Below, one piece after another: positions 34,053 through 42,897 of a stretch of 64,000 bases of DNA (position 1 is its first letter; each line of letters starts with the position of its first letter). The notes below the pieces were generated by a model. The model worked only from the letters and a program-made list of their open reading frames with translations, ran no database searches and was not told the DNA's origin. Both the position numbers and the translations under genes were made by a program. The DNA lies in the NCBI GenBank assembly GCA_000720995.1, contig JOEL01000003.1, positions 62,001-126,000 on the forward strand. Direction: 5' to 3'. This stretch comes from Streptomyces celluloflavus (GTDB lineage: Bacteria > Actinomycetota > Actinomycetes > Streptomycetales > Streptomycetaceae).

Positions 34053-34760
34053 ATGTCCTGGAAGAACACCGCCACCACCGACACCGCCGCCACCGGCACC
34101 ACCACCGCCCGCTCGTCGCTCCGGCGGGGGCGCCGGATCGCCGCAGCATCGCTGATCGCCGTCGCCGCGCTGTCGCTGACCGCCTGCCAGAACGATCGGG
34201 ACGGCGTCAAGGCGAGCCCGGACGCGTCCAGCCCCGGCACTCCTGGTCAGGCGCCGTCCGACGGAGCTCCGGCCACACCGGCCAAGAACGGGTCCGACGG
34301 CGGCGGCAAGTCGCCGGAAAGCGGGCAGAGCCACGGGAGCGGAGCGGGCGCCACCGGCGGCGGCAGTGGTGCCCGGCACTCCGGAGCGAGCGGATCCGGT
34401 GCCGGGGCGGGGTCCTCGAACGGTGGCGGGTCCACGAACGGTGGCGGCTCTGCGTCCCGGGGCAAGGGAGTGGTCGGCACCTGGGAGGGCGTCCTCAACT
34501 ACCTGGCGCCGGGCAAGCTGACGGTCACCCCGTCGTCCGGCCCCGAGCAGGCGTTCTTCATCGGGCCGCAGACCAAGACCCTGGGCGCCGCCGGGATCTG
34601 CGCCTCCAACGGCAACGTCACCGTGGACAGCCACGGCTACGGCACCTCGCCGTGCACCGAGGCCCAGTTGGAGAAGGCGTCCAAGATGGACGCTATCCGG
34701 GTCCGGGTGACGGTCCGGGATGGTCTCGCCACCGAGATCGCGGAGCGCTACCACCCCTGA
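34053..34760 (+). CDS. Lipoprotein with disordered linker, unknown function
   Basis: A 235-residue protein. The N-terminus has a twin-arginine-like basic stretch (SSLRRGRRIAAASLIAV) and a lipobox LTAC. A 100-residue Gly/Ser/Ala linker follows. A compact domain of about 90 residues begins GTWEGVLNYLAPGKLTVTP and contains two Cys (GICASNG, TSPCTEA) that may form a disulfide. The start at 34053 has AAGGGGG 6 bases upstream. It probably displays a small sensing or binding domain on the cell surface. Confidence 0.75.
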   Translation: MSWKNTATTDTAATGTTTARSSLRRGRRIAAASLIAVAALSLTACQNDRDGVKASPDASSPGTPGQAPSDGAPATPAKNGSDGGGKSPESGQSHGSGAGATGGGSGARHSGASGSGAGAGSSNGGGSTNGGGSASRGKGVVGTWEGVLNYLAPGKLTVTPSSGPEQAFFIGPQTKTLGAAGICASNGNVTVDSHGYGTSPCTEAQLEKASKMDAIRVRVTVRDGLATEIAERYHP

Positions 34761-34769
34761 GGACACACC

Positions 34770-34796
34770 CCGGGCGGGCCGTTGCGGCCCGCCCGG
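34770..34796. terminator. Bidirectional terminator between convergent genes
   Basis: A perfect 11-bp stem (34770-34780 with 34786-34796) with loop GTTGC, 9 bp after the lipoprotein stop and 45 bp after the end of the pqq operon's last gene. Confidence 0.88.
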
Positions 34797-34841
34797 TCGG
34801 CTGCCGTCGCGGAAACCCCCGTCCGCGGCGGCAGCGTCATC

Positions 34842-36722
34842 TCAGGATGCCGGGCGGCCCGGTCGGCCACCCGGGGACGAAATGGGTTTCGGTACCGGGG
34901 CCGTTGCCGCTGCCCGGATTGCCGCCGGGGTCGCATAGGCGGTCCCGAGCCAGCTCTCGTCGATGCGCAGCCGCCGGTAGCGCTTGGTGTCGGTGGCGGC
35001 CGCGTGGGTGCTGAGGACTTCCAGTCGCAGGTGGCGGGTGGTGGTCGCGGGAAGGTCGATGAAGGAGACGCCGCGCCGGCTCGGGAGCGTGCCGCTCGCC
35101 ACGGGGCTCCCCCAGTGTTTGCCGTCCTGGCTGGCGTACACCCGGTAGTCCTTGATCCGCGCGGACTGCTCGGTGTCCGAGCGGGCGTAACTGACCGAGT
35201 CCTCCCGCTGGTTGAGGCCGAGGTAGCGCACCTTCCGGGCGGCGCCGAGGTCGTAGTCCAGGGAGACCGGCAGGGTGCGGTCGTTGTCCCAGTACGTCAG
35301 GTAGTCGCCGTCCGCGGCCGCCGCGGCGGGGTGTCCGCTCGCCGCGGCGCCGGCGCTCATCGTGTACGAGGAGGCGGGCAGGATGCCCTGGCGTCCCGCG
35401 GTACGGACCTTGAAAACGGTGTCGTACGAATCCCAGTCGCCGAGGCCGGTCAGGGAGAGGTAGCCGCCGGACTGGGTGAAGGGGATCCGCGCGCCAGTCC
35501 GCAGGTTGGTCACCTCGGCCACCCGGTATCCGTTGTCGCGCAGCCGGAGGGTGGGCTTCGACGGCGGGGTGATGACGTGAAGGTAGTGGCGGTCGGGGTC
35601 GGTGGCGCTGACGGTGGTGACGCCGTGGGCGCCGTCGTTCCAGAAGCCGGGTGCGAGGCCGCCGTGGAGATAGCCGCCGCCTTCGGTGCCGTGCAGGGAC
35701 TCCCAGATGGCGTCGAGATAACCGTCGGCGAAGGCGTTGAAGGCTTCCTGCTTGGCCGGGAAACGGCCGTTGACCTGCGCGGTCTCGGCCATCAGGGCCT
35801 TGATCGAGGAACCGGCGTTGGTGACCAGGCGGCCCAGGGTGAGCTTGCGGTCGACGTCCGGATCGGATCCGTCGTACCACCAGGCCCCGGTGGCGGGGAG
35901 TTTGAAGTCCGCCTCGGTCAGCCGGGGTGCGGCGGTGTAGATGGCCTGCGGATAGTCGTAGGCCGGGGACATGCCGGTCTTCTGCTCATTGCTGATCATG
36001 TCCATGATCGGCGTGTCCTCGTTGTTGTTGCTGAGGGTGTAGTCCGGGCGCTTGCTGTAGATCTGCTCGTAGAGGTGGTGGGTCAGCCAGTAGTCGTTGT
36101 CGTTGTCGATCCAGAAACCGCCCAGCTGGGGGTAGCGGTCCATGACCTCGAAGAAGTTGTCGTAGGAGAACTCGCCGAAGCCCTCCCGGGTGGTGAGGTC
36201 GATATCGCGGCCCTTGTGGCGGGAGTAGCCGGCCGAGTCCAGCCATTCATGGCCGCCCTGGTCGTGCCACTGCGGGTCGTCGGTCATATAGAGCATGACC
36301 TTCAGACCGCGGGCCTTGGCCGCCGTGATCAGCTCGCCGAGGAAGTCCCGCCGGGTGTGGCAGCTCCCCGGGATGTCCGACGGCCAGGGCCTGGCGTAGC
36401 CGAGCCGGCTGTGGAAGGTCGCCAGCACCAGGTACTGGGCGTGCAGTTTGCCGGCCTCCTTCACCCAGTAGTCCGGATTCCATCCGCCGTCGGTGACGTC
36501 CTTCTCCCAGCCGGCGCAGCTGGTGTGCTGCGGCGCGGTCCGCTCCCCCCAGTGGAGGAAGAGCCCGGAGACCGAACCGCGCAGGAACTCCTGGCGCGGG
36601 TGCTGGAGATCGGCGTGTGCCGTGCCGGGCAGCGCGAGCGCGCCGAACAGCAGGGTCAGTACGGCCAGGAGCACCGTGGCCGCCTTGGTACGCGGAGCCG
36701 CGAGGGCCGTCCCTCGTCTCAT
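34842..36722 (-). CDS. Secreted GH29-type alpha-L-fucosidase-like glycosidase with F5/8C domain
   Basis: A 626-residue exported protein. The signal peptide ends near ALPGTAHA. The catalytic (beta/alpha)8 part carries GLFLHWGERTAP (the HWG motif of GH29, residues 53-64) and GGFWIDNDNDYW, where Asp206 is the likely nucleophile. Residues about 470-600 form an F5/8 type C (discoidin/CBM32-like) domain (LDYDLGAARKVRYLGLNQRE, DYRVYASQDGKHW). Fucosidases of this layout act on fucosylated or related deoxyhexose glycans. It is the last gene of the pqq operon, with GAGGTGAC before its ATG and a 5-bp gap to the preceding stop. Confidence 0.8.
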   Translation of the reverse strand: MRRGTALAAPRTKAATVLLAVLTLLFGALALPGTAHADLQHPRQEFLRGSVSGLFLHWGERTAPQHTSCAGWEKDVTDGGWNPDYWVKEAGKLHAQYLVLATFHSRLGYARPWPSDIPGSCHTRRDFLGELITAAKARGLKVMLYMTDDPQWHDQGGHEWLDSAGYSRHKGRDIDLTTREGFGEFSYDNFFEVMDRYPQLGGFWIDNDNDYWLTHHLYEQIYSKRPDYTLSNNNEDTPIMDMISNEQKTGMSPAYDYPQAIYTAAPRLTEADFKLPATGAWWYDGSDPDVDRKLTLGRLVTNAGSSIKALMAETAQVNGRFPAKQEAFNAFADGYLDAIWESLHGTEGGGYLHGGLAPGFWNDGAHGVTTVSATDPDRHYLHVITPPSKPTLRLRDNGYRVAEVTNLRTGARIPFTQSGGYLSLTGLGDWDSYDTVFKVRTAGRQGILPASSYTMSAGAAASGHPAAAAADGDYLTYWDNDRTLPVSLDYDLGAARKVRYLGLNQREDSVSYARSDTEQSARIKDYRVYASQDGKHWGSPVASGTLPSRRGVSFIDLPATTTRHLRLEVLSTHAAATDTKRYRRLRIDESWLGTAYATPAAIRAAATAPVPKPISSPGGRPGRPAS

Positions 36723-36727
36723 GTGCG

Positions 36728-37930
36728 TCACCTCGCCCGCAGTTGTTCCGACATGATCAGGAAGGCGCCCAGACCGTGGAAGTCGTTGGTGGCCCGGGTG
36801 CGGTCGATGTAGTAGGCGTAGTCGCCGACATTGGTGCCGACGGTGATACCGGTGAGGTTGGTACGCCCGTCGGCGCCGAGCGAGATGCTGTGCAGCACGC
36901 CCGTGTACGCCCGCTGGGCGACCTTCGTGTAGTGCGGGTCCAGATAGCCCTGCTGCACCCCACGGGAGAGTGCGAAGGCGAACATGCTCGTACAGGAGGT
37001 CTCGGTCCAGTTGCCGGGGCGGTCCCCCTTGTCCATGACCTGGAACCAGCGGCCGGTGGCCGGGTCCTGGGTGCGTTCCAGGCCCGCCGCGAGCTTGCGC
37101 AGGATGCCGGTGAGCCGGGCGCGGCGCGGATGGCCGGCGGGCAGCGCGTCCAGCACGTCGACATCGGCCATGGCGTACCAGCCGACGGCGCGGCACCACT
37201 GTTCGGGCGCCTGTCCGGTCTTCGGGTCGGCCCAGCCGGCGGTCCCGGACTCGTCGTAGGCGTGGCGCAGCAGGCCGTTCGGGCTCTGCAAATGCGTGCC
37301 GTAGACGTCGAGTTGGCGGGCCGCCTCGTCGTCGGCGTACTGCGTGTCGCCGAATTCCCTGCCGTATTCGACGAGGAAGGGGGTGACCATGTAGACCCCG
37401 TCGCCCCAGAGCTGGTGTGCCCGGCTGCTCGTGGTGGCGTGCCAGAAGCCGCCGTCGGCGGTGCGCGGATAGCTGTCCAGGCGCTTGCGGATCTTGTGTG
37501 CGGCGATCCGGTAGCGGTCCGCGCCGGTCTCGTGGTGCAGGATGACCAGCAGCCGGCCGGCCTGCATGCTGTCCAGGCTGTTGAAGCCCTGGCCGATGTT
37601 GCCCGCACTGTCGACGAACCGGTCCACGTACTCCTTGAGATAGTCGAGATAGCGCTGCTGGTGGGTGCGCAGGTAGACGAGGTACTGGCCGTAGAGGTAG
37701 AGGCCGACCGGGTAGGACCAGCCGCCGATCGTCGCCGGGGTGTAGCGGGCGAGGGTCGAGTCGATCAGCGCCACGGACCAGTCGGTGGCCGCTCCCGGCC
37801 GGGTGGTCGCCGCCTGCCGCGCGGGGGTGCCCGGCTCCGGATGCGCCGCCGCGGCGGGCGGGCCGGGGAGCACGAGGGCGGCGCAGGCGAGGAGCGCGGC
37901 GGTCAGCGCACCGCGGAACCGGGCGTTCAT
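36728..37930 (-). CDS. Secreted GH88/GH105-type glycoside hydrolase
   Basis: A 400-residue exported protein with signal peptide MNARFRGALTAALLACAALV and cleavage near PPAAAA. The (alpha/alpha)6 barrel motifs of unsaturated glucuronyl/rhamnogalacturonyl hydrolases are visible: GGFWHATTS, LWGDGVYMVTPFLVEYGREF, PEQWCRAVGWYAMADVDVL and TSCTSMFAFALSRGV. Such enzymes remove unsaturated uronic acids from pectin or similar oligosaccharides. Its ATG overlaps the TGA of pqqE, so it is translationally coupled to PQQ biosynthesis, an unusual partner. Confidence 0.82.
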   Translation of the reverse strand: MNARFRGALTAALLACAALVLPGPPAAAAHPEPGTPARQAATTRPGAATDWSVALIDSTLARYTPATIGGWSYPVGLYLYGQYLVYLRTHQQRYLDYLKEYVDRFVDSAGNIGQGFNSLDSMQAGRLLVILHHETGADRYRIAAHKIRKRLDSYPRTADGGFWHATTSSRAHQLWGDGVYMVTPFLVEYGREFGDTQYADDEAARQLDVYGTHLQSPNGLLRHAYDESGTAGWADPKTGQAPEQWCRAVGWYAMADVDVLDALPAGHPRRARLTGILRKLAAGLERTQDPATGRWFQVMDKGDRPGNWTETSCTSMFAFALSRGVQQGYLDPHYTKVAQRAYTGVLHSISLGADGRTNLTGITVGTNVGDYAYYIDRTRATNDFHGLGAFLIMSEQLRAR

Positions 37931-39093
37931 CTCGCCCCCTTCGGGGCGGCCGGGGCGCGCCGGGCGGGTTTGCGCGGCCGGCCCAGGCCCGCGGAGGCCC
38001 CTTCGGGCGGGGCGGCCACGAGGTCGCGTACGAGGGCGTGGTCCGGGGAGAGCCGGCAGGCCGGGTCGGTCGCCGCGGCGTCGCCGGTGAGCGCGAACGC
38101 CTGGCAGCGGCAGCCGCCGAAGTCCTGTTCGCGCAGCGCGCAGCCGCGGCACGGTTCGCGCATCCACTCCGTGCCCCGATAGCGGGTGAACGCCGGGGAG
38201 TGGTCCCAGATCCAGGCCAGCGGCCGGTCCCGGACGTTCGGGGCGTCGAGTCCGGGGAGTACGGCGGCGGCCGGACAGGGCAGCGTCGTTCCGTCGGGGG
38301 TGATGGTGAGCGAGACGGCTCCCCAACCGCCCATACAGGGCTTGGCTTTGCCGTCGAAGTAGTCGGGGACCACCCAGACCAGCTCGGTCCGTCCGGCGAG
38401 CTCGGCGCGGCGGCGCCGTACGGTCCGCTCCGCGCGGGCGAGCTGCTCGCGGGAGGGCAGCAGTTCGGCGCGGTTGCGCAGCGCCCAGCCGTAGAACTGG
38501 GTGTTGGCGAGTTCGATACGGTCCGCGCCCCAGGCCGTCGCGAGATCGATCAGCTCGTCCAGCGCGTCGAGGTTGTGGCGGTGCAGGACGACGTTGAGGC
38601 CGAGCGGCAGCCCGGAGTCCTGGACCAGGGCGGCGGCCCGTTCCTTGGCGGCGAAGGAGCGGCGCCCGGCGATACGGTCGTTGGCACCCGGGTCGGCGTG
38701 CTGGACGGACAGCTGCACACTGCGCAGCCCGGCGTCGGCTAGGCGGCCGAGGCGGTCGCGGCCGAGGCCGACGCCGCTGGTGACGAGCTGGGTGTGGATA
38801 CCGGCGCCGTCGGCCGCCGCGACGATCTCCGCCAGATCGGACCGCAGCAGCGGTTCCCCGCCGGAGAGATGGGCGCTGACCACGCCGAGACCGGCGGCCT
38901 GGCGCAGTGCGTCCACCCACTGCTCGGTCGTCAACTCGGCGGATCTGCGGGTGAGTTCGAGCGGATTGGAGCAGTAGGGGCAGTGCAGCGGGCAGCCGTG
39001 GGTGAGTTCGGCGAGCAGCGCCCAGGGGCGGGGCGGCAGGGGCGCCCCAGGCGGGGCGGCGGGCTCCGGCGGGCGCTCCCCGGGCGCGGTCAT
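37927..39093 (-). CDS. pqqE: PQQ biosynthesis radical SAM protein PqqE
   Basis: A 388-residue radical SAM enzyme that, with PqqD, links the Glu and Tyr side chains of PqqA. The [4Fe-4S]-SAM site is Cys34-Cys38-Cys41 (GCPLHCPYC). The C-terminal SPASM cysteines are in KPCMGGWGAV, EPCRGCALRE and GGCRCQAF. Length is typical. It overlaps pqqD upstream and the glycosidase gene downstream by four bases each. Confidence 0.95.
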   Translation of the reverse strand: MTAPGERPPEPAAPPGAPLPPRPWALLAELTHGCPLHCPYCSNPLELTRRSAELTTEQWVDALRQAAGLGVVSAHLSGGEPLLRSDLAEIVAAADGAGIHTQLVTSGVGLGRDRLGRLADAGLRSVQLSVQHADPGANDRIAGRRSFAAKERAAALVQDSGLPLGLNVVLHRHNLDALDELIDLATAWGADRIELANTQFYGWALRNRAELLPSREQLARAERTVRRRRAELAGRTELVWVVPDYFDGKAKPCMGGWGAVSLTITPDGTTLPCPAAAVLPGLDAPNVRDRPLAWIWDHSPAFTRYRGTEWMREPCRGCALREQDFGGCRCQAFALTGDAAATDPACRLSPDHALVRDLVAAPPEGASAGLGRPRKPARRAPAAPKGAR

Positions 39094-39347
39094 CGCAGCC
39101 AGCCTTCGGCGCGTATCCGGCCGAGGAACGCCGGCACCTCGGCCGCCACCGGAGCATCCGGGTACCGCACGGCCAGCTCCGCCACGATGTCCGGCACGGC
39201 GCGCACCCCGTCACAGAGCCGCAGTACGGCGCCCGCGCTCCCTTCGAGGACGACGACCCGCTCCGGCAGGAGCAGCAGATCGGTGTCGCGCACCTGGTCG
39301 TGGCGCAACTGGACGGCGGGGGCCAGGGCGGGGCACCACCGTGTCAT
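39090..39347 (-). CDS. pqqD: PQQ biosynthesis peptide chaperone PqqD
   Basis: An 85-residue RiPP recognition element. It has LAPAVQLRHDQVRDTDLLLL at the N-terminus and the typical VLEGSAGAVLRLCDGVRAVP helix, which presents PqqA to PqqE. It is a separate gene rather than fused to pqqC. Both ends overlap neighbours by four bases. Confidence 0.92.
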   Translation of the reverse strand: MTRWCPALAPAVQLRHDQVRDTDLLLLPERVVVLEGSAGAVLRLCDGVRAVPDIVAELAVRYPDAPVAAEVPAFLGRIRAEGWLR

Positions 39348-40021
39348 GGCCGCTCCCCGCGCTCGACGGCGTCCAGCAGCGACCACAGCACCTGGCATTT
39401 GAAGGTCAGCGCGGCGACCGCGAGGTCCTGTTCGGCGTCGGTGCGCGCCCAGTCCAGGACGAGGGCCAGCGCTTCCTTGCTGTCCCGCCGCCCCTGGGCC
39501 TGCCGGCCCCGGAAGTAGGCGAGCCCCTCCGCGTCGATCCAGCCGTAGTGCCGTTCGAAGGCGTCGATACGGGTGCGCATGATGTCCGGGGCGGACAGTT
39601 CGGTGAGCGAGGCGGCGACCGCCTCCAGCGGGGAGCGCAGCCGGCAGAAGTTGACGTAGCCGTCGACGGCGAGCCGTACGCCCGGCAGCACGCCCGCCTC
39701 GTCCAGCAGCAGCGCCCGGTCGAGTCCGGCCGCTTCGCCGAGCCGCAGCCAGCGTTCCAGGCCGCCTTCGCCCTCCCGCTGCCCGTCGTGGTCCTGGATC
39801 CGGCGCAGCCACATCCGGCGCAGCTCCGGTGTGCCCAGCTTCGCGGTGATCAGGGCGTCCTTGACGGGGATGCAGCGCTGGTAGTGGAACCGGTTGCGGA
39901 TCCAGCGGCGCAGCTCCTCCGGCGTCAACTCCCCCGCGTGCATGCGGAGGTTGAAGTGGTGTCGGTCGTGGTAGCTGTCGCGTGCCACGGTCCGCAGCCG
40001 CTCCTCGAAGGGCGTGCTCAT
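39344..40021 (-). CDS. pqqC: Pyrroloquinoline-quinone synthase PqqC
   Basis: A 225-residue, heme-oxygenase-fold, cofactor-free oxidase that performs the last oxidation and ring closure of PQQ. Supporting segments are YHDRHHFNLRMHAGEL, WIRNRFHYQRCIPVKDALI (active-site His/Tyr/Arg-rich helix) and RDSKEALALVLDWA. Length and order of motifs are normal. Confidence 0.94.
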   Translation of the reverse strand: MSTPFEERLRTVARDSYHDRHHFNLRMHAGELTPEELRRWIRNRFHYQRCIPVKDALITAKLGTPELRRMWLRRIQDHDGQREGEGGLERWLRLGEAAGLDRALLLDEAGVLPGVRLAVDGYVNFCRLRSPLEAVAASLTELSAPDIMRTRIDAFERHYGWIDAEGLAYFRGRQAQGRRDSKEALALVLDWARTDAEQDLAVAALTFKCQVLWSLLDAVERGERP

Positions 40022-40932
40022 AGGGCGATCTCCATGCCTTCCGCGGCCACCGCGAGCCCCTGTTCGGCCAGCCGCTCGTGCTGCGGCGCTCCGGGGTCCA
40101 CGAGGGGGTTGGTGTTGTTGAGGTGGGTGTAGAGGCAGCGGGCGGCGAGCGGGGCGAGCCGGCGGGCGGTGCCGGCCGGCCCGTCGATGGGCAGATGGCC
40201 CATACCGGTCGCGGTCCGGGTGGAGAATCCGCTGCGGCGTGGTTCGTCGTCGTCCCAGAACGTGCCGTCGACCAGGACGCAGTCGGCATCGGCCAGCGCG
40301 TCCTGGAACGCGTCGGACCAGGCGGCGAGCGCGGGCGCGTAGACGGCGGTGCCGCCGGTGCGGCGGTCGTGCAGACGCAGGGCGACGACCCACGGTTCGG
40401 GGCCGGCGTCGGGTCCGGCCGGGCCGGGGGCCGCGGCCGCGTAGCGGGGGCGCTTGGCTGAGACCGGGACGGCGCTGATCTCGACGTCGAATCCCTCGCG
40501 CAGCGGAACGGGCCGCGCGCCCAGCTCCCGCCATACGAGGTCCGCGTACGGCGTGAGGACGGCGTCCAGGTGCGCTTGTTCGCAGAGTGCGGTGCGGACG
40601 CGGCCGGTGGCGAGGACCTCGATGCGGTCGGCCTCGCGGAGCCGGGCGATGCCGAGGGTGTGGTCGAGTTCGGCGTCGGTGAGGACCACGCCCGCCACCG
40701 GGGTCCGGCGCGCGGCGGGGCCCGGGTGCAGCGCGGCCGTGCTCTCGATCTGGTCGGCGATATCGGGGGTGGCGTTGATCAGATACCAGTGGTCGTCGTC
40801 GGCTCGTACGGCGAGCGAGGCGTGGCGGCGGCGCCGGTCGGGATGGGCGCGTGCCCCGGTGCACCCGGGGCACGCACAGTTCCACTGGGGCACGCCGCCA
40901 CCCGCCGCGGTGCCGAGCACCCGCAACAGCAT
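40018..40932 (-). CDS. pqqB: PQQ biosynthesis metallo-hydrolase-fold protein PqqB
   Basis: A 304-residue metallo-beta-lactamase-fold protein. It starts with RVLGTAAGGGVPQWNCACPG; the Cys pattern NCACPGC forms the structural zinc site of PqqB. LTDAELDHTLGIARLREAD takes the place of the metallo-hydrolase HxHxDH motif, as in other PqqB proteins. PqqB is thought to act as an iron-dependent tyrosine hydroxylase on the PqqA-derived dipeptide. It overlaps pqqC by four bases and begins 10 bp after pqqA. Confidence 0.94.
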   Translation of the reverse strand: MLLRVLGTAAGGGVPQWNCACPGCTGARAHPDRRRRHASLAVRADDDHWYLINATPDIADQIESTAALHPGPAARRTPVAGVVLTDAELDHTLGIARLREADRIEVLATGRVRTALCEQAHLDAVLTPYADLVWRELGARPVPLREGFDVEISAVPVSAKRPRYAAAAPGPAGPDAGPEPWVVALRLHDRRTGGTAVYAPALAAWSDAFQDALADADCVLVDGTFWDDDEPRRSGFSTRTATGMGHLPIDGPAGTARRLAPLAARCLYTHLNNTNPLVDPGAPQHERLAEQGLAVAAEGMEIAL

Positions 40933-40942
40933 GGCGGGGCGG

Positions 40943-41101
40943 TCAGCGGGCGTTCAGGGAGTAGGCGGTGACTTCCAGCGCGGTCTCGATGACCGTGTAG
41001 TCCGGGGCCTGCCAGGCGGTCTGCTCGCCGTGCGGCGCGGCCGGGCCGGGGGTGTGCGGCGGCTGCGAGTTCCGCGGGGGCTGCTCCATGGCGTCGTTCA
41101 T
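40943..41101 (-). CDS. pqqA: PQQ precursor peptide PqqA
   Basis: A 52-residue peptide. Its C-terminal part ETALEVTAYSLNAR contains the ExxxY core (Glu43 and Tyr47) that is converted to PQQ, and it matches LEVTxY in characterised PqqA peptides. The N-terminal 30 residues are Pro/Gln-rich and longer than in proteobacterial PqqA (22-25 residues in total). It heads the operon, as expected, and was missed by size-limited gene calling in many genomes. Confidence 0.93.
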   Translation of the reverse strand: MNDAMEQPPRNSQPPHTPGPAAPHGEQTAWQAPDYTVIETALEVTAYSLNAR

Positions 41102-41626
41102 GTGGGGTCCAGCCTTTCGTGTGGGGGTCGGTCGCGGTCGCCCGCACCGCGCTCGTCCGAGGGTCGTCGCCCGCCCGGTGGCCGGGGACGGTGGGCCGGG
41201 GCGGCCGACGCCGCCCGGTCCGCGGAGGGGGCGCGTGCCGCTTGCGCGTCCGCCGACGGCCCGGTCCGCCGACGGCCCGGGGGCGCCGGCCGCCGGCGGA
41301 TCGCCGGCCATGTCGTGTGGCGGTGCGTTGTCATGGCGTTGCCGTGTGTTGCATGGTGCTGCTCTGCAGAATCCCGAGCTTGGGGGGCGCGGTCAATGGG
41401 GCGGAACAAAAAATGATCCGACCTATGGAGCGATCACGTCTCTGCGGTGAACTCCCCGCACCGGCAATCCGCCTGCTCACCCCGCACTTCAGCAGCATCT
41501 CCCACGGCACACACCCGGTCCGAAGATCTTCGGACGCCAACTCACCCCGACGTGCGGGGAGATACGTCCTACCTTCCCGTCCCTTGACCCCTGCCCATGG
41601 GCGCAGTAGTTTCCGGGCCGGACCAT
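41102..41626. other. Divergent promoter region between pqqA and the sugar dehydrogenase gene
   Basis: About 525 bp with no gene. It must contain the promoters of both the pqq operon and the sugar dehydrogenase gene. Segments around 41,330-41,460 are lower in GC than the surroundings. Confidence 0.5.
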
Positions 41627-41641
41627 TAGGAAACTTTCCTA
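41627..41641. promoter_or_regulatory. Palindromic operator candidate upstream of the sugar dehydrogenase
   Basis: TAGGAAACTTTCCTA is a perfect inverted repeat with 7-bp arms around a central C, 71 bp before the ATG of the sugar dehydrogenase gene. Its AT-rich core stands out from the surroundings. It is a plausible regulator-binding site in the 5' region. Confidence 0.6.
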
Positions 41642-41712
41642 TCAGCCTGGCGCCGCTGATGCCCGCCCCCGAGGGAACACCCCGTCACATCTGCCTGACC
41701 GGAGGACCCCCC

Positions 41713-42897
41713 ATGCGCATGCGCACCACCACAGCCCGGCACGCCTCCCTCACCGCGGTGGCCGCCGCCACTCTGGCCACCGGCCTGCTCATCGCCGCGG
41801 CCGGCACGGGCGGCGCCGCCACCGCCCCGCACAGTGCCGCCACGACCACGACGAACAGCGCCACCGGAGGCGCCGCCGCAGCGACGGGCCGTGCGGCCGC
41901 CGCTGCCACGGCGCCCGGCCTCACCTCGGCACCCGGCTCGATCAAGACCATCTCGTCGGACTGGTCCATCCCATGGGGCCTGAGCTGGCTGCCCGACGGC
42001 TCGGCCCTGATCACCGAGCGCGATACGTTCAAGGTCTTCACGCTCGCCCAGGACGGCACGAAGAAGGAGATCGGCAAGGTACCGAACGTCGTCACCACGG
42101 GCGGCGAGGGCGGCCTGCTGAGCATCGCCGTATCGCCGTCCTGGAAGACCGACCACTACGTCTATCTGATGCACACCGCTTCGGAAGGCAACCGCATCGC
42201 GCGGATGACCTTCAACGGCGGCAAGCTCAGCGGCTACAAGGTGCTCGTCGACGGCATCAAGAAGAACAAGTACCACGACGGCGGACGCCTCAAGTTCGGC
42301 CCCGACGGCTACCTCTACGCCACCACGGGCGAGGCCCAGGACCGAAAGCTGGCCCAGGACAAGTCCTCGCTCAACGGCAAGATCCTGCGGATGACCACCG
42401 ACGGCAAACCGGCCCCCGGCAACCCCTTCGGCACGCTGCTCTACTCCTACGGCCACCGCAATCCGCAGGGCATCACCTGGGACGCCCAAGGCCGCCTGTG
42501 GGAGGCGGAGTTCGGCGACGCCAAGTACGACGAACTGAACCTCATCGAGCCTGGGAAGAACTACGGCTGGCCCACCTGCGAAGGCACCTGCTCCGTCGAC
42601 GGGATGACCAACCCCAAGCGGCAGTGGCCGGTCAGCGAGGCATCGCCCAGCGCGGTCGCGTACGCCGACGGAGCGATCTACATGGCGGCCCTGCGCGGCC
42701 AGCGCCTGTGGCGCATCCCGGTCGACGGCACCACCGCCGGCACCCCCAAGGCGTACTACACCGGCGACTACGGACGGCTGCGCACGGTCGAGACCGTCCC
42801 CGGTAAGAACTCCCTGTGGCTGACCACCACCAACGCCGACAACAACGGCAAGGCCGGGCCCGGCTCGGACAAGGTGTTCCAGGTCGATCTGAAGTAG
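41713..42897 (+). CDS. Secreted PQQ-dependent sugar dehydrogenase
   Basis: A 394-residue exported six-bladed beta-propeller of the soluble glucose/sorbosone (aldose sugar) dehydrogenase family. A signal peptide and a Thr/Ala-rich linker cover residues 1-70. The PQQ/substrate site is in KYHDGGRLKFGPDGYLYATT, where His188 is the likely general base and Arg192 contacts PQQ. SYGHRNPQGITWD and EFGDAKYDELNLIEPGKNYG complete the family pattern. GGAGGA lies before ATG 41713. It oxidises aldoses outside the cell using PQQ made by the divergent operon. Confidence 0.92.
   Translation: MRMRTTTARHASLTAVAAATLATGLLIAAAGTGGAATAPHSAATTTTNSATGGAAAATGRAAAAATAPGLTSAPGSIKTISSDWSIPWGLSWLPDGSALITERDTFKVFTLAQDGTKKEIGKVPNVVTTGGEGGLLSIAVSPSWKTDHYVYLMHTASEGNRIARMTFNGGKLSGYKVLVDGIKKNKYHDGGRLKFGPDGYLYATTGEAQDRKLAQDKSSLNGKILRMTTDGKPAPGNPFGTLLYSYGHRNPQGITWDAQGRLWEAEFGDAKYDELNLIEPGKNYGWPTCEGTCSVDGMTNPKRQWPVSEASPSAVAYADGAIYMAALRGQRLWRIPVDGTTAGTPKAYYTGDYGRLRTVETVPGKNSLWLTTTNADNNGKAGPGSDKVFQVDLK

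What the first reader, a model, noticed from the sequence alone, without database searches (positions are those of the whole stretch)
34842..42897. PQQ biosynthesis operon translationally coupled to two secreted glycosidases, with a divergent PQQ sugar dehydrogenase
pqqA-B-C-D-E run on the minus strand with 4-base overlaps between B/C, C/D and D/E. The same overlap (ATGA) joins pqqE to a secreted GH88/GH105-type gene, which is followed after 5 bp by a secreted GH29-type gene with an F5/8C domain. Divergent from pqqA is a secreted PQQ-dependent sugar dehydrogenase. The sequence shows the layout directly. The inference is a single extracellular sugar-release and sugar-oxidation module in which cofactor synthesis is tied to glycan breakdown. 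I do not know of a described coupling of pqqE with a GH105-type enzyme.
Basis: partly seen in the sequence, partly recalled or inferred. Interest (0 to 1): 0.72.

Follow-up and report, generated by a model that had tools for sequence, protein, structure and literature searches.

The report
PQQ operon joined to glycan-degrading genes
A Streptomyces carries, in one overlapping gene run, the genes that make the redox cofactor PQQ and two sugar-cutting enzymes that look secreted, beside a dehydrogenase of a PQQ-using family, and the same linkage recurs in related soil bacteria, often as part of a larger glycan-degrading gene cluster.

Summary
pqqABCDE, a GH105-type gene (GHa) and a GH29/F5-8C gene (GHb) form one minus-strand run with 4-base overlaps at B/C, C/D, D/E and pqqE/GHa; a GSDH gene (PQQ sugar-dehydrogenase family) diverges from pqqA. 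It is no accident of one genome: 29 distinct pqqE-GHa junctions were found, 22 with the 4-base overlap. Of 80 named loci with a GHa relative, 25 have pqqE directly upstream and 55 a GSDH. The window is a cut-down copy of a larger actinobacterial cluster: GHa, a uronate-lyase-fold protein, GH28, GHb, GH27, GH18-like, and a GSDH that usually carries a CBM35 (44 of 54). Linkage survives rearrangement. But pqq is the optional part: 50 of 80 loci have no pqq gene nearby, and 4 of 4 such genomes checked lack pqqE over the cut-off. So the firmer partnership is glycan enzymes plus PQQ-type dehydrogenase, with cofactor genes gained or lost repeatedly. Export, substrate, PQQ use and electron acceptor are untested; the full enzyme set fits fucose-bearing glucuronan of Mucoromycota at least as well as plant pectin. 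Ten searches of open-access papers showed no description of the link; Streptomyces pqq is discussed there as phosphate solubilisation.

The parts
40943..41101 (-). pqqA, precursor peptide, 52 aa
   Evidence: TIGR02107 25.1 bits over cut-off 20
40018..40932 (-). pqqB
   Evidence: TIGR02108 355.9 bits
39344..40021 (-). pqqC
   Evidence: TIGR02111 270.6 bits
39090..39347 (-). pqqD
   Evidence: TIGR03859 74.1 bits
37927..39093 (-). pqqE, radical SAM/SPASM
   Evidence: TIGR02109 500.7 bits
37927..37930 (-). ATGA overlap of pqqE stop and GHa start
   Evidence: 4-base overlap in 22 of 29 distinct junctions (20 by script, 2 on reading, and for L114)
36728..37930 (-). GHa, GH105-type (unsaturated uronyl hydrolase), signal-like N-terminus
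   Evidence: PF07470 298 bits; best solved relative YteR
34842..36722 (-). GHb, GH29-type with F5/8C domain, signal-like N-terminus
   Evidence: PF01120 and PF00754; model matches GH29 fucosidases
34770..34835 (.). two hairpins after GHb (34770-34796 and 34800-34835), possible end of the run; no T tract
   Evidence: not listed as terminator by the scan
41719..42897 (+). GSDH, soluble PQQ sugar dehydrogenase family, signal-like N-terminus, no carbohydrate-binding module
   Evidence: PF07995 238 bits; best solved relative 3das; motifs

Best explanation
pqqABCDE-GHa-GHb is one transcribed, probably translation-coupled run and, with the divergent GSDH, a reduced member of a conserved actinobacterial cluster for breaking and oxidising a uronic-acid glycan outside the cell. 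Shown: gene identities, overlaps, recurrence of pqqE-GHa, and linkage of GHa, GHb and GSDH. Inferred: GHa removes unsaturated uronic acid ends made by lyases (lyase and GH28 are not found in this genome); GHb removes L-fucose or a similar sugar; the secreted GSDH, loaded with PQQ from the same run, oxidises the freed aldoses and passes electrons to an unknown acceptor. Where pqq is missing, GSDH would use PQQ from neighbours. The glycan is unknown; a fucose-bearing glucuronan of Mucoromycota is my first guess.
For: 29 distinct junctions, 22 with 4-base overlap. GHa, GHb and GSDH together in 11 of 12 GHa-bearing genus loci; GSDH in 55 and GHb in 57 of 80 named loci. 44 of 54 cluster GSDHs carry a CBM35. 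GSDH sits beside pqq without GHa in 18 of 28 other fetched pqq loci, two of them in pieces and one cut by the contig, once by the same 4-base overlap with pqqE (L052). GSDH motifs HxGGR, GHRNPQG and GRLR kept in 54 of 54. Linkage kept through different orders: L101, L107, L135, L151, L045/L046. In 149 genus genomes, pqqE and GHa co-occur more than by chance (8 of 12 GHa genomes have pqqE against 24 of 137 others; Fisher p 0.0005, shared ancestry not corrected). All nine YteR active-site residues named in PMC4528949 are matched and invariant in 13 GHa rows.
Against: 50 of 80 GHa loci have no pqq gene nearby and 25 of 80 lack GSDH; 4 of 12 GHa genomes have no pqqE over cut-off. Nearest pqq relative G090 has no GHa and keeps pqq. 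Window genome lacks the lyase and GH28 (without a positive control). No activity, export or PQQ binding shown; GSDH misses TIGR03606. Streptomyces pqq papers discuss phosphate solubilisation instead.
Confidence: 0.58

Rival explanations
1. The working unit is only pqq plus GSDH, a general sugar-oxidising (for example phosphate-solubilising) system; glycan genes share its site because that slot tolerates insertions, and the overlap is inherited rather than selected.
For: pqq with GSDH but no GHa in 18 of 28 loci; one slot between an aldo-keto reductase and an AMP-ligase gene holds the cluster with pqq in 14 and without in 18 named loci, and in L052 and L055 pqq plus GSDH without GHa. Papers on Streptomyces pqq speak of gluconic acid (PMC11858620, PMC12472026, passages).
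Against: Linkage also occurs where neither flank gene was found (8 of the 30 named loci with pqq) and in other orders and genera; GSDH stays with the glycan genes in 28 of 50 loci without pqq; CBM35 on GSDH.
Confidence: 0.25
2. The cluster degrades plant pectin (RG-I) or arabinogalactan, not a fungal glucuronan.
For: Best solved relative of GHa is YteR, an unsaturated rhamnogalacturonyl hydrolase; GH28 domain over cut-off; GH27 matches include beta-L-arabinopyranosidases.
Against: GH18-like part nearest to an exochitinase, GH8 in L114, lyase fold near alginate and glucuronan lyases; Mucorales glucuronan contains GlcA, fucose, galactose and mannose (PMC6433966, passages).
Confidence: 0.4
3. GSDH here does not use PQQ, and PQQ serves another enzyme, such as the second GSDH of the genome (contig C12).
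For: 133 bits against a cut-off of 434.55 for TIGR03606; second GSDH on C12 scores higher in Pfam (254 against 239 bits); GSDH is kept in four genomes without pqqE over cut-off (4 of 4).
Against: Conserved motifs in 54 of 54; 18 of 28 other pqq loci have a GSDH nearby.
Confidence: 0.1
4. Accidental neighbours.
For: G090, close in its pqq genes, lacks the GH pair, with aligned DNA on both sides of the gap.
Against: 28 other distinct junctions; in G090 the divergent GSDH is frame-broken as well.
Confidence: 0.03

Closest known systems
Bacterial pqqABCDE operons with a PQQ dehydrogenase nearby
   Same: Complete pqqA-E set in order; GSDH-family gene beside it
   Different: pqqE overlaps a glycan hydrolase gene; no description of this found in the searches listed
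YteR-type GH105 unsaturated rhamnogalacturonyl hydrolase (1nc5)
   Same: Fold family and active-site residues
   Different: Signal-like N-terminus and place in a PQQ run; substrate untested
GH29 alpha-L-fucosidases
   Same: Fold by model, Pfam match over cut-off
   Different: Low sequence identity (about 20%); F5/8C domain; fused to GH28 and GH27 in relatives such as L037
Streptomyces coelicolor aldose sugar dehydrogenase 3DAS
   Same: Best solved relative, 328 bits
   Different: Cluster relatives mostly add CBM35 and fn3 domains; window copy does not
Fungal AA12 PQQ pyranose dehydrogenase (CcPDH)
   Same: Works alike if the reading is right: secreted, CBM-bearing in relatives, sugar oxidation; CcPDH oxidises L-fucose
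   Different: Not an AA12 member by any match here; no cytochrome domain; made next to cofactor genes

Membership tests
PQQ biosynthesis operon | PqqA to PqqE, each over its NCBIfam cut-off | tested here: met
PQQ biosynthesis operon | production of PQQ | not testable with these tools
   needs chemistry
GH105 | family profile and YteR active-site residues (Tyr41, Asp88, His132, Trp141, Asp143, Met147, His189, Trp211, Trp217) | tested here: met
   mapped by hand on the alignment; Pfam's PF07470 covers GH88 and GH105 alike
GH29 | fold and profile | tested here: met
   model of middling confidence (mean pLDDT 73.7)
GH29 | catalytic nucleophile and acid/base | tested here: inconclusive
   an Asp at 206 is invariant in 20 rows and sits where I recall the nucleophile; not mapped on a structure
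Soluble PQQ sugar dehydrogenase (PF07995) | profile and conserved His, Arg-Asn and Arg-x-Arg motifs | tested here: met
   link of motifs to PQQ binding partly recalled, partly from PMC6881789 passages
NCBIfam TIGR03606 PQQ dehydrogenase subfamily | score over cut-off | tested here: not met
   133 against 434.55 bits
AA12 | AA12-like profile match, cytochrome domain | tested here: not met
   only PF07995, PF08450 and PF23500 listed
CAZyme gene cluster with transporter and regulator | adjacent transporter or regulator | tested here: inconclusive
   none among seven neighbouring proteins scanned; other neighbours not scanned

The most novel reading that the evidence does not exclude
Actinobacteria own a portable extracellular operon in which a peptide-derived redox cofactor is made in step with enzymes that strip a fucosylated glucuronan (Mucoromycota wall or slime), while a polymer-bound PQQ dehydrogenase oxidises the sugars in place; species that lost pqq are cofactor scavengers living off producers.
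Probability: 0.27. Interest if true: 0.78.

Novelty: new variant of a known kind. Interest (0 to 1): 0.6.

Why it matters
In the papers found, Streptomyces pqq genes are discussed for gluconic acid and phosphate. A conserved overlap of pqqE with a glycan hydrolase, in clusters whose dehydrogenase usually carries a carbohydrate-binding module, would tie a cofactor to breakdown of a particular polymer: a bacterial parallel to fungal AA12 enzymes. Natural versions of one cluster with and without pqq make cofactor sharing among soil bacteria directly testable.

Tried and rejected
Accidental adjacency: rejected by conserved junctions. One insertion site as the whole explanation: weakened. Loss of the active site in GSDHs of pqq-less clusters: not seen, motifs kept in 28 of 28; my first pattern missed half of the GHRNPQG variants and one search corrected it. 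Missing lyase and GH28 elsewhere in the window genome: no match (one search had no positive control). Lyase-fold protein by sequence: weak Pfam match to PF14099 (33.4 bits, cut-off 29.9) in L037 and none in the L045 relative, no meaningful solved relative (best E 0.89); fold search gave the broad alginate, glucuronan and heparin lyase group. GH18 label: Pfam listed no GH18 domain in the L037 protein; the label rests. Promoter and terminator scan: no promoter, one chance-level terminator on the plus strand; it suits Streptomyces poorly. Direction of pqq change: the GHa tree ('quick' method) needs at least 13 changes, shuffled mean 24, at least 5 forced by starred branches, but gives no direction. 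Literature: ten searches (some searches were on neighbouring questions) over open-access papers only; passages of eight papers seen, the rest as listings.

Full report
Observation. The coordinates of the finding are right. On the minus strand pqqA (40943-41101), pqqB (40018-40932), pqqC (39344-40021), pqqD (39090-39347), pqqE (37927-39093), GHa (36728-37930) and GHb (34842-36722) follow each other; B/C, C/D, D/E and E/GHa overlap by 4 bases and GHa/GHb are 5 bases apart. All five Pqq proteins pass NCBIfam cut-offs. GSDH (41719-42897, plus) begins about 0.6 kb from pqqA. Two hairpins lie just after GHb. The window lies in an 8.68 Mb assembly of 193 contigs; the nearest named GHa row is from Streptomyces inhibens (84% over 354 tree columns).

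The two hydrolases. GHa's best solved relative is YteR, GH105 (310 bits). Nine YteR active-site residues listed in PMC4528949 (passages), mapped by hand on that alignment, correspond to Y73, D120, H164, W175, D177, M181, H223, W245 and W251 of GHa, all invariant in 13 rows. GHb matches the fucosidase and F5/8C profiles; a model from 20 rows (mean pLDDT 73.7, with poor stretches such as 243-278) finds GH29 fucosidases first.

Genus sample. In 150 genomes of the genus, the window's included, pqqE passes its cut-off in 33 and a strong GHa (E below 1e-100) occurs in 13. Leaving out the window genome, 12 have GHa: six with pqqE just upstream (G040, G033, G128, G101, G063, G146), two with pqqE about 7.5 kb away in another order (G096, G055), four with no pqqE over the cut-off (G011, G117, G084, G068). 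I mapped 40 fetched stretches: the 12 with GHa and 28 pqq loci without it; 3 of the 40 pqqE loci over cut-off (G130, G142, G111 C28) were not fetched in full. GHb lies in 12 of 12 and GSDH in 11 of 12; the miss, L043, ends near a contig end. Of the 28 pqq loci without GHa, 18 have a GSDH match (L063 and L065 in pieces, L067 cut), and six of the ten misses are a distant pqq type, L069-L074.

Named genomes. A search with the GHa alignment found 125 relatives, of which the best 80 were kept: mostly Streptomyces, also Amycolatopsis, Nonomuraea, Kribbella, Actinoallomurus, Actinacidiphila, Kutzneria and Catenulispora. Some are the same genomes as the unnamed ones (three identical junctions). Of 80: pqqE directly upstream 25, at least three pqq genes 27, no pqq gene 50, GHb 57, GSDH 55, GH28 54, GH27 47, GH18-like 38, lyase-fold protein 49. 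Contig ends cut some; of the 69 with at least 8 kb upstream and 9 kb downstream the same counts are 20, 24, 44, 50, 47, 48, 39, 30 and 42. In the 20 of these with GHa below 66% identity the link is thin: one with pqq, four with GSDH.

The junction. One search found 32 pqqE-GHa junctions, 29 distinct, window included: 20 have a GHa start 4 bases inside pqqE by script, L042 and L114 on reading (L114 also), L123 and L128 overlap by one base, and L041, L090, L092, L105 and L113 do not overlap. each give 25 named adjacent loci but differ by one (L133 in the first, L099 in the second). Most junctions show GGAGG-like sequence before the ATG, so fresh starts are possible too.

The full cluster. In L037 the run is pqqA, C, D, E, GHa, a 259 aa lyase-fold protein, an 1827 aa protein with GH28, GH29, F5/8C and GH27 domains and a chitinase-like tail, and a 660 aa CBM35-fn3-fn3-GSDH protein, with gaps of 4, 11 and 59 bases by my own gene caller. 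44 of 54 cluster GSDHs carry a CBM35. The window keeps GHa, GHb and a plain GSDH; its genome shows no GH28 and no lyase-fold match and has a second GSDH elsewhere. The lyase-fold model (mean pLDDT 78.2) resembles PL7, heparin, PL14 and glucuronan lyases with TM near 0.5.

Optional cofactor genes. On a tree of 81 GHa rows (31 with at least two pqq genes nearby, 45 without, 5 undecided) the label changes at least 13 times. The slot between an aldo-keto reductase and an AMP-ligase gene holds the cluster with pqq in 14 and without in 18 named loci. GSDH motifs are intact with pqq (26 of 26) and without (28 of 28). G090, with pqq proteins 52-88% identical to the window's, lacks the GH pair; DNA on both sides aligns, and its divergent GSDH is frame-broken.

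Other arrangements. L107 (Actinoallomurus): GH18-like, GSDH, GHb, GHa, GH28, GH27, a second GHb and pqqA-E in one direction. L101 (S. varsoviensis): GSDH divergent from GHa-GHb-pqqA-E. L151 (S. violaceusniger), G096 and G055: GHb-pqqA-E with the rest beside it. L135 (Amycolatopsis saalfeldensis): distant pqqC-D-E-B (43-56%) divergent from GHa, GH28 beyond, no GSDH found. L135 is one case only.

Mechanism and novelty. My reading: secreted enzymes free sugars from a uronic-acid glycan and a PQQ-type dehydrogenase oxidises them outside the cell, with the pqq run supplying cofactor. Fungal PQQ pyranose dehydrogenase oxidises L-fucose to L-fuconic acid and drives LPMOs (PMC4133262, PMC5960967; passages), which makes a GH29 partner sensible. 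The Mucoromycota idea rests on reported sugar make-up (PMC6433966; passages) and is much weaker than the linkage. Each family is known; the combination was in none of the listings searched, so I call it a new variant of a known kind.

Noticed in passing
L037, L039, L041, L042, L044; 14 of 28 named loci with pqqC and pqqE: pqqB is missing from the pqq run next to GHa. In G040, G101 and G146 the only PqqB-model match lies elsewhere in the genome; 42-45% identical to the window PqqB, with shared neighbour genes.
   Followed up: partly
L161 (G084), L162 (G068): These genomes have no pqqE over cut-off, yet keep the same unlinked PqqB-type gene: perhaps a relic of lost pqq, or a gene with another role. 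G011 and G117 have none.
   Followed up: partly
L069-L074: A second, distant pqq type in Streptomyces (PqqE 52-57% identical to the window's) without a GSDH match in the stretch held.
   Followed up: no
window 34470-34760 (+): Small gene of no Pfam family, convergent with GHb; its relative stands directly after pqqE in L063.
   Followed up: no
L001 (contig C109 of the window genome, 707-904): A second PqqD-domain match, stronger than the pqqD of the run (59.4 against 41.4 bits), on a short contig.
   Followed up: no
L041 (G128): The pqqC next to GHa is cut short, while a second, complete pqq set lies elsewhere (L058).
   Followed up: no
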